From assembly GCF_000176915.2 (NCBI RefSeq), contig NC_014844.1, positions 1,860,001-1,924,000 on the forward strand: 64,000 bases of DNA, given 5' to 3'. The notes beneath the pieces are model-generated. The model saw only the letters and a list, made by a program, of their open reading frames with translations. It ran no database searches and was not told the DNA's origin. Source of the DNA: Pseudodesulfovibrio aespoeensis Aspo-2 (GTDB taxonomy: Bacteria > Desulfobacterota > Desulfovibrionia > Desulfovibrionales > Desulfovibrionaceae). Of the stretch, positions 50,668 to 54,683 are shown one piece after another. Numbering within the stretch: the first letter of the stretch is position 1; every line of letters starts with the position of its first letter. A program made the position numbers and the translations under genes.

Positions 50668-50702
50668 GCCGGAGCCTCCCCGCCATGGGGACCGGCTCCG
50701 GC
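50668..50702 (-). terminator. Terminator of the siroheme/cupin/ferredoxin operon
   Basis: GCCGGAGCC-TCCCC / GGGGA-GGCTCCGGC with a small bulge forms a strong stem, followed on the minus strand by TTTTTGCG. It begins 22 bp after the stop at 50725. Confidence 0.85.
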
Positions 50703-50724
50703 GCAGGCAAACAGAGTGAACAGG

Positions 50725-51372
50725 CTAGGAAATCGCCGCCATCACGGCCTTGATGCCGACCCGCTCCACGAACCGCGCGGTACGCTCACGCTTCCTGCCG
50801 TTGGCGGCGTAGTGGGCCAGGGTCTGGCCGATGACGCGCAGGGCCTCGTCATTGCTCACATCCTCGGCCAGGACATCGCCGACGCGCACCCGCTTGCCCG
50901 CGTTGCCGCCGAAGATCACGGTCCACCCCTGTTTCTTGCCCACCAGCCCGATGTCGCGCACAAAGCTCTCGGAGCAGCACATGGAGCAGCCGGACACCCC
51001 GGCCTTGACCTTGGCAGGCAGCGTGAAGGTGTTCAGAAACTCCTCAAGGCGCGCCCCCGTGTCCATGGAATCCTGCATGGCCAGACGGCAGGAGGTGACA
51101 CCGGGACAGGCCTGGACGTAATATTTGCAAAACTCGCCCACAGGGCCGAGATGGCGGATGACCTCGTCCAGCCGGTCACCGGGGATTCCCTGGAGCTTGA
51201 GGCGCTGCCCGGCGGTGACGCGCACGCCGGGCAGCCGGAACTCTTGGACCACGGCATTGATTATGTTCAATTGTTCCGGATTGATCCGGCCCAACGCCAG
51301 GCGTGGGGTGACGGAGTACAGCCCCTCCTGACGCTGGGCCTGAACGCCTTCCGGCAATGCATCGCTTTTCAT
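50725..51372 (-). CDS. Small siroheme/4Fe-4S sulfite (nitrite) reductase, assimilatory type
   Basis: A 215-aa single-module reductase of the kind purified from Desulfovibrio as the low-spin 'assimilatory-type' sulfite reductase. It has a ferredoxin-like half (res ~20-85) and the 4Fe-4S/siroheme half with CPGVTSC (CX5C) and CSMCC (CX3C), the four ligands of the coupled cluster. It can reduce sulfite, nitrite or perhaps hydroxylamine; which one is in vivo is unknown. AAGGAG five bases before ATG 51372 rules out the extension to 51420. It is last in a four-gene operon below an FNR-type regulator. Confidence 0.9.
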   Translation of the reverse strand: MKSDALPEGVQAQRQEGLYSVTPRLALGRINPEQLNIINAVVQEFRLPGVRVTAGQRLKLQGIPGDRLDEVIRHLGPVGEFCKYYVQACPGVTSCRLAMQDSMDTGARLEEFLNTFTLPAKVKAGVSGCSMCCSESFVRDIGLVGKKQGWTVIFGGNAGKRVRVGDVLAEDVSNDEALRVIGQTLAHYAANGRKRERTARFVERVGIKAVMAAIS

Positions 51373-51436
51373 CTGGTCTCCTTCATGCGGGTCTGGTGAC
51401 GTGCCTTCATTCAAGCGCAATGGGCGGACCAGGGCA

Positions 51437-51754
51437 TCAGATGGGCGGGGCTATGGTCACCAGCACGCGCATGTCCGTGGTGGCGCGGACCCCGTGCGGC
51501 TCGGCGATCTCCGAGACCAGCACGTCGCCGGGCCGGGCGGGCATGGTCGCCCCGTCGGCGGCCATGAACTCCCCCTCGCCTTCGAGGATGACCAGGGTCA
51601 GCTCCCCTTCCAGGTCATGGGAGTGGACCGGCAGCTTCTGCCCGGCCTTGAAGTTGAAGTTGATCACCTTCATGTGCTCTGACTCGTGAACCAGGTAGTT
51701 GGAGAACGTCAGATCCTTGAATCCATGTTCCTTGTACAGCTCTATCTTCTTCAT
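51437..51754 (-). CDS. Cupin-domain protein
   Basis: A 105-aa single cupin barrel. The metal-binding motifs are VHSHDLEGELTLVILEGEGEF (His, His, Glu) and PHGVRATTD with the last His. The DNA encodes no signal peptide. Small cupins of this type bind a metal and often serve as sensors or enzymes of unclear substrate. CAAGGAGG lies before the ATG. It lies 15 bp downstream of the ferredoxin-like gene and 64 bp upstream of the siroheme reductase, so it is part of their operon. Confidence 0.85.
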   Translation of the reverse strand: MKKIELYKEHGFKDLTFSNYLVHESEHMKVINFNFKAGQKLPVHSHDLEGELTLVILEGEGEFMAADGATMPARPGDVLVSEIAEPHGVRATTDMRVLVTIAPPI

Positions 51755-51769
51755 GGCAGCCTCCTTGGG

Positions 51770-52567
51770 CTATGCGTTGAACGGTTCGGTTCTGAGGACC
51801 CGCCCGTCGAGGGACACGACAACGCGCCGGGCATCCACCGCCTTGCCGGCCCGCTTGATGGCCTGGGACAGAATCGCGCTCATGGACGAGCAGCACGGCA
51901 CCTCCATCTCCATGACCGTGATGGATCTGAGACCGTTCTGGGCAATGATTTCGGCCAGCTTGTCCACATATTCCTGCTGGTTGTCGAACTTGGGACAGCC
52001 CATGAGCACCACCCGGCCCGGCAGATATTCAGCATGGTAGGCGGGCAGGGCCACAGGCACGCAGTCAGCGGTCAGCAGCAGGTCGGCCCCGCGCAGGAAT
52101 GGCGCGGTGGGCGGCACGAGCCGGAGCTGGACCGGCCAGTGGGAGAGCGCGGAACCGCTCCCCTGCCCCGTGCCAGCCGCCATGGCAGCGGGGATATTGG
52201 CCCGCTCGCACGGGGTCATGGTCCGCAGGGCGGCACCAGGGCAGCCGCCCGCAGGCCTCGCCGGACGGCGATCCAGGCGCAGGCTTTCAGGGGACGGCAT
52301 GTGGTCCGGCACCTCGCGGCCCTGGGCCTTCAGATGTTCGGTCACGGCATCGGGGTCAAAATCCTCGGCCTCGCACACGATCACCTTGAGCGCGCCCGTG
52401 GGGCACTCGCCCAGGCACGCGCCCAGGCCGTCGCAATACTGCTCCTTCACCAGCCGGGCCTTGCCGTCCACAATGGCCAGCGCACCCTCGGCGCAGGACG
52501 GGACGCACTCGCCGCATCCGTTGCACAATTCTTCGTCTATGCTGATCATTTTTCTCATGTAAGCCAT
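51770..52567 (-). CDS. 4Fe-4S ferredoxin-domain protein with a Cys-rich C-terminal domain
   Basis: A 265-aa soluble protein. The N-terminus has a complete cluster site CNGCGECVPSC and a second degenerate one CDGLGACLGECP in which the second Cys is Leu. A Pro/Ala-rich spacer (res ~110-160) follows. The C-terminal ~100 residues contain TADCVPVAL, LMGCPKFDN and EVPCCSSM, conserved-looking Cys that could form a second redox site. I recognise the overall type from anaerobe genomes next to cupins and Crp-family regulators, but not a defined function. GAGGTGG before ATG 52567 fixes the start. Confidence 0.78.
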   Translation of the reverse strand: MAYMRKMISIDEELCNGCGECVPSCAEGALAIVDGKARLVKEQYCDGLGACLGECPTGALKVIVCEAEDFDPDAVTEHLKAQGREVPDHMPSPESLRLDRRPARPAGGCPGAALRTMTPCERANIPAAMAAGTGQGSGSALSHWPVQLRLVPPTAPFLRGADLLLTADCVPVALPAYHAEYLPGRVVLMGCPKFDNQQEYVDKLAEIIAQNGLRSITVMEMEVPCCSSMSAILSQAIKRAGKAVDARRVVVSLDGRVLRTEPFNA

Positions 52568-52595
52568 GGTACCACCTCGTTTGAAAAGTATCCGA

Positions 52596-53927
52596 CTATA
52601 TTCTGGCCACGCCGAGAAACATGGCGTGGAGACTGACGACCAAAACAATGAACACGGTCCGGGCCGCCTCGCCTGTCAGGCCGGGAAACCTGTACCCGAT
52701 CTGCCCATGGGCGCAGGCGGACACGCAATCCCCGCACAGGGTGCAGGACAGGGCCGGGGATCCCTGGGCCACGCGGTCGGCATCGAGCGCGCCATAGCGG
52801 CAGCGGGTAAAGCACGCGCCGCAGCCGGTGCACTCCTGCCCGATGCGCACCCGCCAGGGCGAAACCTTGCCCAGCACGTTGGCCACAAGCCCCATGGGGC
52901 AGTAGGCGGTGCAATGGGCCATGAGGCCGAGCCTGCGCGAGACCAGGGCCATGATGCCCACGCCCACCAGCCCGAAGGCCGCGGCAAAAAGCACCGCCGT
53001 GGTGCCGGGCACGCCCATGGCCCGCAGGAGCAGCGCGGCACCGACGGCCAGGACCAGGGTCGCGCCCCGGCCCGCCACGCTCAGGCGGCGCAGCAAGGCA
53101 GAGGGGGCCGGACCGGGGCCGCGTCGGCTCATGATGTCGTCCCACGCGCCAATGTAGCACAAGTGGCTGCACCAGGCCGGGCCGACGAGCAGCACGGTCA
53201 CGCCGAACAGGATGGGCATGAAGAATCCCTCGCCCCGGAAGACCGGCCCTGCCGCAATGAGCGCAGGCACGGGCAGATGGAGCGTCCCGGTCATGAGCAT
53301 GGATTCCATGCCCGCCAGCCCCAGGACGAGCTGGCCGAAGAACACGGCGGAAAAGGCGGCCCAGATGCGTGGCCGGTTGCGCCTGTGCCCTTTTGGCGCG
53401 AGCATCAGCCCGACGATCCACTGGGCGTAGACGCCAAGGGCCATGATCTCAAGCCAGCCCCAGCCGGGGAAATACCGGTCGGCCAGCAGGATGGGGAACG
53501 GAACCCTGGACCGGATCAGGGCCAGCCCGATCACGGTCAGCAGGAAGACGGCGGCCCGCGGCCCGGCGTGGTCTCCCCTGTCGAACCAGCGACCGCCAGC
53601 CCGGCCCGCGACGAGCCACAGGGCGAACAGGGTGAAGGCAACCACGCCGGTCATGATGGAGAGCAGCCGCAGCCAGGGCATGCCCGCAGCCTGCCGGAAA
53701 CCGATCAGGCCAAGGCTTGTCTCGACCCAGACCAGAACGCCCCAGGCCAGGGCCGCTGTGGCGACATGGCGCACAAAGCCGTGCCGGGTGACCATCAGGC
53801 CGACCAGACCGGCCAGGGCCGCCACCAGCCCGGCATCCCCCATGCGCAAACTGTGCGCGCCAAGCAGGAGCAGGGCCGCGACCGGCAGGAGCATGAGCAG
53901 GTGTCTTTGGCGTGTCTTCATGATCAA
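52596..53927 (-). CDS. Membrane polyferredoxin, NapH/CcoG-like
   Basis: A protein of about 443 aa with roughly nine hydrophobic helices. Cytoplasmic Cys motifs are CSHLCYIGAW and HCTAYCPMG in the membrane part, then two 4Fe-4S sites CTGCGACFTRC and CTLCGDCVSAC near the C-terminus, then a final helix. Such proteins move electrons between the quinone pool and soluble ferredoxins or reductases. The start is unclear: TTG 53927 has AAAGG seven bases upstream, ATG 53921 has poor spacing, and ATG 53957 has none and would overlap the operator. It is first in the four-gene operon and diverges from the crp-family gene. Confidence 0.82.
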   Translation of the reverse strand: MIMKTRQRHLLMLLPVAALLLLGAHSLRMGDAGLVAALAGLVGLMVTRHGFVRHVATAALAWGVLVWVETSLGLIGFRQAAGMPWLRLLSIMTGVVAFTLFALWLVAGRAGGRWFDRGDHAGPRAAVFLLTVIGLALIRSRVPFPILLADRYFPGWGWLEIMALGVYAQWIVGLMLAPKGHRRNRPRIWAAFSAVFFGQLVLGLAGMESMLMTGTLHLPVPALIAAGPVFRGEGFFMPILFGVTVLLVGPAWCSHLCYIGAWDDIMSRRGPGPAPSALLRRLSVAGRGATLVLAVGAALLLRAMGVPGTTAVLFAAAFGLVGVGIMALVSRRLGLMAHCTAYCPMGLVANVLGKVSPWRVRIGQECTGCGACFTRCRYGALDADRVAQGSPALSCTLCGDCVSACAHGQIGYRFPGLTGEAARTVFIVLVVSLHAMFLGVARI

Positions 53928-53955
53928 AGCATGGCCTTTCTTTTTGACGACAACC

Positions 53956-53969
53956 ATGACTTAGGTCAA
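53956..53969. promoter_or_regulatory. FNR/HcpR-type operator in the divergent gap
   Basis: ATGAC-TTAG-GTCAA on the + strand, i.e. TTGAC-N4-GTCAT on the other, is a near-perfect FNR-family palindrome extended by AAT. It lies between the polyferredoxin and crp-family starts. HcpR regulators of Desulfovibrio recognise, as I recall, TTGAC-N4-GTCAA-like sites. The local regulator has the ETLSR recognition helix that reads TTGA half-sites. Confidence 0.65.
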
Positions 53970-54002
53970 ATTGGCATGATAATAACGCGAGATGGAGAAA
54001 AA

Positions 54003-54683
54003 ATGACAGTAGACAAACTTCAGGCGGTCCGGTCCATCACCTTTTTCCAGGGATTGCCGGAAGAAAAACTCGCCAGGATCGCGGGCATCGCCGTGGTCAA
54101 GCGGTACGAGAAGGGCGAGGTGCTTTTCGAGGCCGATATCCTGGCCCACGGCTTCTATGCCCCGGTCACGGGCCGGGTGAAGATCTACCGCACCTCGCCT
54201 TCGGGCAAGGAGCACATCCTGCATGTCTTCGGCCCGGGCGAGGCGTTTGGCGAGGTGCCGGTGTTCGAGGGCAGGACCTTTCCGGCCCACGCCCAGGCCC
54301 TGGACCCGTGCGAGGCGCTCTTCTTCCCCAGGCGCGACTTCGAGGAAATGATCAGGAAAGACCCGGACATCGCCATGAAGATGATGGCCATGCTCTCGCA
54401 AAAGCTGCGCCTGCTGGTCAACAAGATCGACGATCTGAGCCTCAAGGAGGCTCCGGCCCGGGTGGCCTCATACCTCCTGCTGCTGCGTTCGTCACAAGAC
54501 GCGGACACGTTCCGGCTCGACCTGCCCAAGGGGCAGATCGCCTTTTATCTCGGCACGATACAGGAGACACTCTCGCGCATATTCAAGCGGCTCACCGACG
54601 AGGGGATCATCGCCATCGAAGGCAGGGAGATCACCATCCTTGACCGGGAAAGGCTCGAAACCCTGGCCGGGGAAGGCCGCTGA
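54003..54683 (+). CDS. Crp/Fnr-family transcription regulator (HcpR-like)
   Basis: A 226-aa regulator with an N-terminal cyclic-nucleotide-type sensor barrel (res ~10-120, GEVLFEAD and GEAFGEVPVF) and a C-terminal winged helix whose recognition helix is IQETLSRIFKRL (FNR-type E..SR). It has a single Cys, so it cannot hold a FNR 4Fe-4S cluster. Haem/NO sensing, as reported for HcpR proteins, or small-molecule binding is possible. GGAG five bases before ATG 54003 fixes the start within a much longer open frame. The palindrome 34 bp upstream suggests it controls both itself and the divergent redox operon. Confidence 0.85.
   Translation: MTVDKLQAVRSITFFQGLPEEKLARIAGIAVVKRYEKGEVLFEADILAHGFYAPVTGRVKIYRTSPSGKEHILHVFGPGEAFGEVPVFEGRTFPAHAQALDPCEALFFPRRDFEEMIRKDPDIAMKMMAMLSQKLRLLVNKIDDLSLKEAPARVASYLLLLRSSQDADTFRLDLPKGQIAFYLGTIQETLSRIFKRLTDEGIIAIEGREITILDRERLETLAGEGR

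What the first reader, a model, noticed from the sequence alone, without database searches (positions are those of the whole stretch)
50668..54683. Compact FNR-regulated redox module: polyferredoxin, ferredoxin, cupin and siroheme reductase
Four same-strand genes with short gaps, one strong terminator at the end, and a divergent FNR-type regulator with a TTGAC-N4-GTCAT palindrome between them form a self-contained unit. The gene products form a plausible electron path from the quinone pool (NapH/CcoG-like membrane protein) through a Cys-rich ferredoxin to a siroheme reductase, with a cupin of unknown role. The regulator has ETLSR in its recognition helix, which reads such half-sites, and only one Cys, so it senses something other than an FNR cluster. 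Nitrite, hydroxylamine, NO or sulfite stress are candidate signals.
Basis: partly seen in the sequence, partly recalled or inferred. Interest (0 to 1): 0.72.

Follow-up and report, generated by a model that had tools for sequence, protein, structure and literature searches.

The report
NO-stress operon with small siroheme reductase
A sulfate-reducing bacterium carries a small, conserved gene unit that most likely helps it survive nitric oxide and nitrite; it is a rearranged version of a known stress locus and suggests a job for a small sulfite-reductase-like enzyme.

Summary
In a Pseudodesulfovibrio genome, napH-like, 4Fe-4S ferredoxin, cupin and small siroheme-reductase genes lie on one strand with a divergent CRP/FNR-family regulator, an operator between them and a terminator at the end. 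All five genes are kept in 32 of 34 genus loci fetched, the operator TTGAC-N4-GTCAT type in 34 of 34. The same operator type lies upstream of hcp (hybrid cluster protein) in 33 of 33 genus hcp loci examined, although hcp is elsewhere in the genome. In 7 of 20 hand-picked loci of sister genera the order is regulator | siroheme protein, napH-like, hcp, frdX (cupin behind it in 2). The unit is best read as the known HcpR/hcp-frdX nitrosative-stress locus with hcp moved away; Rodionov (2004) already predicted a 'sulfite/nitrite reductase, polyferredoxin' operon in the HcpR regulon. New here: the hcp-less arrangement, the genus's only FrdX in it, and siroheme genes of two lineages, one grouping with Nitratidesulfovibrio alSir (20 of 34 loci), the other a separate, fast-evolving group that is the sole copy in the window. 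I expect the siroheme enzyme to reduce nitrite or hydroxylamine with electrons from FrdX and NapH. Substrate, electron path and sign of regulation are inferred, not shown.

The parts
54003..54683 (+). CRP/FNR-family regulator of DNR/HcpR type, 226 aa
   Evidence: cNMP_binding 7.1e-25 and HTH_Crp_2 4.6e-18; best PDB match DNR 3dkw 1.9e-34, P. gingivalis HcpR 9day 7.3e-12; orthologues at 62-89% in 33 other genus loci; homologue near hcp in 4 of 21 order-level loci
53956..53969 (.). operator ATGACTTAGGTCAA (TTGAC-N4-GTCAT on the - strand)
   Evidence: pattern in 34 of 34 genus loci; stays beside napH-like when about 1.1 kb separates the regulator in G019; same type upstream of hcp in 33 of 33 loci examined
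52596..53957 (-). NapH/CcoG-like membrane polyferredoxin; start at 53957 or, more likely, 53921
   Evidence: TIGR02163 1.1e-10 but below that model's cut-off; Fer4_5, Fer4_9; in 20 of 31 genus loci scanned a start codon with a ribosome-site match lies 53-58 bp from the operator centre; in the window the candidates are at 5.5, 35.5, 41.5 and 68.5 bp, none with such a match
51770..52567 (-). FrdX: N-terminal 2x[4Fe-4S] ferredoxin plus a C-terminal domain with invariant cysteines, 265 aa
   Evidence: Fer4 matches; invariant Cys in a 32-row alignment; one match per genome at E 1e-20 in 34 of 36 genus genomes; next to hcp in 14 of 20 family loci chosen by hand
51437..51754 (-). single-domain cupin, 105 aa, metal ligands kept
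   Evidence: Cupin_2 4.9e-10; His44, His46 and His87 each in 43 of the 44 loci searched; median identity 88%, highest of the unit
50725..51372 (-). small siroheme-[4Fe-4S] reductase (SIR1 lineage), 215 aa
   Evidence: NIR_SIR 3.5e-21 and NIR_SIR_ferr 7e-12; cluster cysteines C89, C95, C129, C133 in 32 of 32 SIR1; split from all other rows at 100/100
50668..50702 (-). intrinsic terminator closing the operon
   Evidence: direct reading and (-30.5 kcal/mol, z -2.66)

Best explanation
The unit is the HcpR-controlled nitrosative-stress operon of Pseudodesulfovibrio: an hcp-less form of the hcpR / siroheme protein / napH-like / hcp / frdX / cupin locus seen in sister genera. Shown: gene content, operator, its sharing with hcp, and synteny with hcp in part of the family loci looked at. 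Inferred: NO (formed from nitrite) binds the regulator, probably through heme, and changes its hold on TTGAC-N4-GTCAW, raising transcription of hcp and of this operon. The NapH-like membrane protein and the ferredoxin FrdX then pass low-potential electrons to two sinks, Hcp (NO to N2O) and the small siroheme reductase (nitrite or hydroxylamine to ammonium) in the cytoplasm. The cupin has an intact metal site and no assigned step.
For: Five-gene arrangement in 32 of 34 genus loci and operator in 34 of 34. TTGAC-N4-RTCAT 83-107 bp before hcp in 33 of 33 genus hcp loci examined, shuffled mean 0.2. FrdX gives one match per genome in 34 of 36. In 7 of 20 hand-picked family loci the order is regulator | siroheme protein, napH-like, hcp, frdX; in 2 of these the cupin follows, and in 9 of 20 it follows frdX; a palindrome precedes hcp in all 15 loci that hold hcp. 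At order level the regulator homologue is near hcp in 4 of 21 loci, one with nrfHA and a napH-like gene as well. In print: HcpR motif wyTTGACnnnnGTCAArw (PMC1274295, passages); HcpR-site operon 'putative sulfite/nitrite reductase, polyferredoxin', said there to rise under nitrite stress by personal communication (PMC545781, passages); P. gingivalis HcpR activated by NO on heme (PMC12750200, abstract and passages).
Against: 15 of 21 order-level regulator loci show none of the module's marker genes above 45 bits, and 3 of the 20 family loci show the ferredoxin alone, so both families are wider than this job. G031 has the operon, but its only Prismane-family match is 634 aa long, the length of CO dehydrogenases, so hcp may be absent there. 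The regulator is closer by sequence to DNR than to P. gingivalis HcpR. The single operator lies between two divergent starts about 38-58 bp away, a position that fits repression of the regulator better than classical activation. The genome also has NrfA, so a second nitrite reductase is not obviously needed. No expression or enzyme data.
Confidence: 0.72

Rival explanations
1. Sulfite or sulfur-assimilation unit: the siroheme protein is an assimilatory-type sulfite reductase (alSir), and the ferredoxin and NapH-like protein feed sulfite reduction under a redox-sensing CRP/FNR regulator.
For: SIR2, the second siroheme gene in 20 of 34 operons, groups with the alSir-type proteins of Nitratidesulfovibrio, Halodesulfovibrio and Desulfovibrio sp. 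A2 at 97/80; D. vulgaris alSir (DVU1597) is called a sulfite reductase in PMC3448663 (passages).
Against: The operator type is shared with hcp in 33 of 33 loci examined, and related loci contain hcp and in one order-level genome nrfHA. A siroheme sulfite-reductase homologue can reduce nitrite and hydroxylamine (PMC9295563, passages). Sulfur-assimilation genes were not searched for.
Confidence: 0.12
2. General redox or ferredoxin-quinone balancing unit: FrdX and the NapH-like protein exchange electrons between ferredoxin and menaquinone, and the siroheme protein is an overflow sink.
For: NapH-like proteins connect quinone pools and ferredoxins (established for NapH, recalled); the siroheme type differs between genera while napH-like and frdX stay.
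Against: A siroheme protein of some lineage is present in the 7 family loci with regulator, napH-like, hcp and frdX together and in 32 of 34 genus loci, and hcp is linked by place or operator.
Confidence: 0.1
3. As to the sign of control (compatible with the main reading): the regulator acts mainly as a repressor of its own operon that NO or nitrite releases.
For: Operator centre about 38-58 bp from both start codons, inside the likely core promoters; D. desulfuricans HcpR2 is modelled as a repressor released by NO (PMC5701242, passages).
Against: At hcp the operator lies 83-107 bp before the start codon, a position suited to activation; HcpR activation of hcp was predicted in D. vulgaris (PMC545781, passages).
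Confidence: 0.3

Closest known systems
HcpR regulon of Desulfovibrio and other delta-proteobacteria (hcp-frdX and the 206515-206516 'sulfite/nitrite reductase, polyferredoxin' operon; Rodionov 2004, 2005)
   Same: CRP/FNR-type regulator, TTGAC-N4-GTCAA-type operator, FrdX, polyferredoxin and a siroheme-domain protein under the same control as hcp
   Different: hcp is not in the locus; cupin and FrdX are joined to napH-like; the siroheme protein has the two-domain alSir build instead of the type with inserted [4Fe-4S] domains seen in sister genera; the D. vulgaris operator in print is TGTGA-N6-TCACA
Assimilatory-type (low-spin) sulfite reductase alSir, D. vulgaris DVU1597
   Same: Size, PF03460 + PF01077 domains, four cluster cysteines; SIR2 groups with Nitratidesulfovibrio alSir-type proteins (DVU1597 itself was not in the tree)
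   Different: The window holds only SIR1, a separate group that evolves faster (0.545 against 0.833 mean identity in the same 19 genomes) and has Arg instead of Lys at position 51
DEACI_1836, proposed ferredoxin-dependent nitrite reductase of Acididesulfobacillus acetoxydans (PMC10949509, passages)
   Same: Same two domains, four cysteines, a ferredoxin gene next to it, raised under nitrate as is Hcp
   Different: 300 aa against 215; the organism is not a Desulfovibrionaceae; no HcpR operator at this gene in the passages read
NapGH / CcoG-type membrane ferredoxins
   Same: Membrane polyferredoxin with NapH-like C-terminal part
   Different: Scores far below the NapH cut-offs (41.5 against 213 bits); other nap genes were not searched for

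Membership tests
HcpR regulators / HcpR regulon | CRP/FNR fold with cNMP-type sensor domain and Crp HTH | tested here: met
HcpR regulators / HcpR regulon | Regulates hcp: its operator type upstream of hcp | tested here: met
   33 of 33 genus hcp loci examined; binding itself not tested
HcpR regulators / HcpR regulon | Gene next to hcp or frdX | tested here: met
   divergent from the frdX operon in the genus; near hcp in 4 of 21 order-level loci and in 8 of 20 hand-picked family loci
HcpR regulators / HcpR regulon | Groups with characterised HcpR in a tree | not tested
   no D. vulgaris or D. desulfuricans HcpR sequence was in hand; pairwise, DNR scores higher than P. gingivalis HcpR
HcpR regulators / HcpR regulon | Heme binding and NO response | not testable with these tools
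   needs spectra; heme-ligand residues were not aligned
FNR | Four cysteines for a [4Fe-4S] cluster | tested here: not met
   0-3 Cys in 34 genus loci, none in 12, two of these read in part
FrdX | Ferredoxin encoded beside hcp | tested here: met
   homologues next to hcp in 14 of 20 family loci chosen by hand; in this genus hcp lies elsewhere
alSir (assimilatory-type low-spin sulfite reductase) | NIR_SIR_ferr + NIR_SIR in about 220 aa, CX5C and CX3C | tested here: met
alSir (assimilatory-type low-spin sulfite reductase) | Falls inside the alSir clade | tested here: inconclusive
   SIR1 is split from all other rows at 100/100, SIR2 lies among alSir-type rows; the tree is rooted at the midpoint only, and long branches are flagged
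alSir (assimilatory-type low-spin sulfite reductase) | Low-spin siroheme and sulfite reduction | not testable with these tools
   biochemistry
NapH | Score above the NapH model cut-off | tested here: not met
   41.5 bits against 213.05 (TIGR02163), 37.1 against 234 (NF007013)

The most novel reading that the evidence does not exclude
The 'assimilatory-type sulfite reductase' family (alSir and its SIR1 relative) is in this genus a nitrosative-stress enzyme: a cytoplasmic, FrdX-fed nitrite/hydroxylamine reductase of the HcpR regulon that works beside Hcp, drawing electrons from the membrane through a NapH-like protein. Different siroheme proteins have filled the same slot in the locus in different genera.
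Probability: 0.4. Interest if true: 0.6.

Novelty: new variant of a known kind. Interest (0 to 1): 0.42.

Why it matters
The small siroheme reductase of sulfate reducers was studied as a sulfite reductase, and to my knowledge (recalled) its role in the cell is unsettled. Conserved placement under an HcpR-type operator, with the FrdX that accompanies Hcp in relatives, gives a direct test of a nitrogen-oxide role. It also points to FrdX and a NapH-like protein as candidates for the electron supply of Hcp in these anaerobes, which bears on the use of nitrite against oil-field souring.

Tried and rejected
FNR-cluster sensing: rejected, no conserved cysteines. Ordinary 'FNR box': the two other CRP/FNR paralogues of this genome found each have a TTGAT-N4-ATCAA box directly upstream, unlike this regulator's TTGAC-N4-GTCAW. 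A genome-wide list of sites did not yield a clean regulon: TTGACNNNNGTCA has 48 matches on both strands together (control 18), TTGAYNNNNRTCAW 58 (control 11); of the 30 read in context few lie between genes, so only hcp and this operon are claimed.

Selections and misses: genus loci are 34 of 36 genomes (G013 had no regulator match, G029 only a fragment at a contig end). The two loci without all five genes are L034 (G019, contig end) and L059 (G020, no napH-like or siroheme gene). hcp loci are 33 of 36 genomes, one gene per genome: G013's was not fetched, G019 and G031 listed none of the usual size, and second Prismane-family genes of similar length in some genomes (for example G022, G032, G033) were not examined. 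SIR2 counts: 20 loci with a second siroheme hit, one of them partial (L052), 19 used. The 82 named rows include two SIR1 and two SIR2 of the genus (L190, L204). The 20 family loci were chosen by hand out of 106 genomes with a match. The named loci came from one scan, 80 of 102 kept.
Full report
What is there. The window lies in a 3,629,109-base genome whose nearest named relatives are Pseudodesulfovibrio; from recall the length fits P. aespoeensis Aspo-2. Four genes on the - strand encode a NapH-like membrane polyferredoxin, a ferredoxin of 265 aa, a 105-aa cupin and a 215-aa siroheme protein. A 226-aa CRP/FNR-family regulator is divergent. Gaps are 28, 15 and 64 bp. The operator ATGACTTAGGTCAA lies at 53956-53969, and a stable hairpin with a T run closes the operon.

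Conservation. I fetched the locus from 34 of 36 genus genomes. The complete arrangement is kept in 32 of 34; one exception is a contig end, the other lacks napH-like and the siroheme gene. The operator pattern is present in 34 of 34, with mean top-base frequency 0.97 against 0.72 and 0.57 in the flanks; shuffles average 0.3 of 34. In G019 about 1.1 kb separates the regulator from the operator, which stays with napH-like, which suggests that the operon is the conserved target.

Link to hcp. All 36 genus genomes have a Prismane-family gene (by established knowledge the family also covers CO dehydrogenase). In the 33 hcp loci fetched, one per genome, a TTGAC-N4-RTCAT site precedes hcp by 83-107 bp in 33 of 33; shuffled sequences give 0.2 on average. 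None of the operon's marker proteins was matched in these hcp loci. The ferredoxin gene gives one match per genome in 34 of 36 genomes. In a sample of the order it is found in 106 of 120 genomes. In 20 family loci chosen by hand it is next to hcp in 14 and without other markers in 3; in 7 the order is regulator | siroheme protein, napH-like, hcp, frdX, and two of these also have the cupin behind frdX. The siroheme protein there is of another kind: three examples scanned, one from the order level, show NIR_SIR with [4Fe-4S] domains inserted. At order level one locus has regulator | hcp, nrfHA and a napH-like gene, and another has frdX, regulator | hcp and a siroheme gene; but 15 of 21 regulator loci show none of these markers.

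Prior knowledge. HcpR, its TTGAC-N4-GTCAA motif in delta-proteobacteria, hcp-frdX, and an HcpR-site operon for a 'putative sulfite/nitrite reductase, polyferredoxin' were described by Rodionov and colleagues (PMC545781, PMC1274295; passages). A supplementary-figure legend in PMC4287179 (passages) lists a cupin gene among the neighbours of hcp and hcpR in Desulfovibrio. P. gingivalis HcpR senses NO through heme (PMC12750200, abstract and passages). The unit is thus a variant of a known locus.

What is new. (1) hcp has left the locus while its operator type is shared. (2) The siroheme slot holds two lineages. SIR2 (20 of 34 loci) groups with alSir-type proteins of Nitratidesulfovibrio, Halodesulfovibrio and Desulfovibrio sp. 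A2; DVU1597 itself was not in the tree. SIR1, the only alSir-type match at E 1e-20 in the window's genome, is split from all other rows at 100/100 (midpoint root, long branches flagged). In the 19 genomes with both, SIR1 averages 0.545 identity and SIR2 0.833, SIR2 being higher in 171 of 171 pairs; these pairs are not independent. SIR1 keeps all four cluster cysteines (32 of 32) and has Arg at position 51 (32 of 32), where SIR2 has Lys (19 of 19) and the named rows Lys in 80 of 82, two SIR1 duplicates being among those 82. (3) The cupin is the most conserved protein of the unit (median identity 88%, against 79-82% for GlyS, TrkA and S20), with His44, His46 and His87 each in 43 of 44 loci searched.

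Mechanism. The regulator cannot be an FNR-type cluster sensor; its closest solved relative is DNR, a heme-NO sensor by established knowledge. I propose NO as signal, the NapH-like protein and FrdX as electron carriers, and Hcp plus the siroheme enzyme as sinks. Support for a nitrite role of such small siroheme proteins comes from A. acetoxydans DEACI_1836, raised under nitrate as is Hcp and proposed as a ferredoxin-dependent nitrite reductase (PMC10949509, passages), and from an F420-dependent sulfite reductase homologue that reduces nitrite and hydroxylamine (PMC9295563, passages). Against a need for it, the genome has NrfA. The sign of regulation is open: the operator sits close to both starts.

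Verdict. A new variant of a known kind, of moderate interest because it makes the role of the small siroheme reductases testable.

Noticed in passing
G000:C1:872296-872940 and 2508597-2509238 (outside the window): Two other CRP/FNR paralogues, each with a perfect TTGAT-N4-ATCAA box directly upstream, so this genome seems to separate FNR-type and HcpR-type boxes.
   Followed up: partly
G000:C1:640267-640280 (L092, L155): A perfect TTGACTAAGGTCAA palindrome about 250 bp upstream of a gene that reads like an Fe-S hydrogenase (not scanned); it could be a further regulon member.
   Followed up: no
[not shown]
   Followed up: partly
51437-51754: The cupin of unknown role is more conserved across the genus than the flanking housekeeping proteins.
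   Followed up: partly
L052 (G035) and G035:C51:134601 / 156209: In G035 the operon's SIR2 match is partial while a full alSir copy and a fragment lie about 9 and 31 kb away.
   Followed up: no
L205, L218: In a Desulfobacterales and a Proteobacteria MAG an FrdX-like gene lies directly before an alSir gene, outside the family.
   Followed up: no
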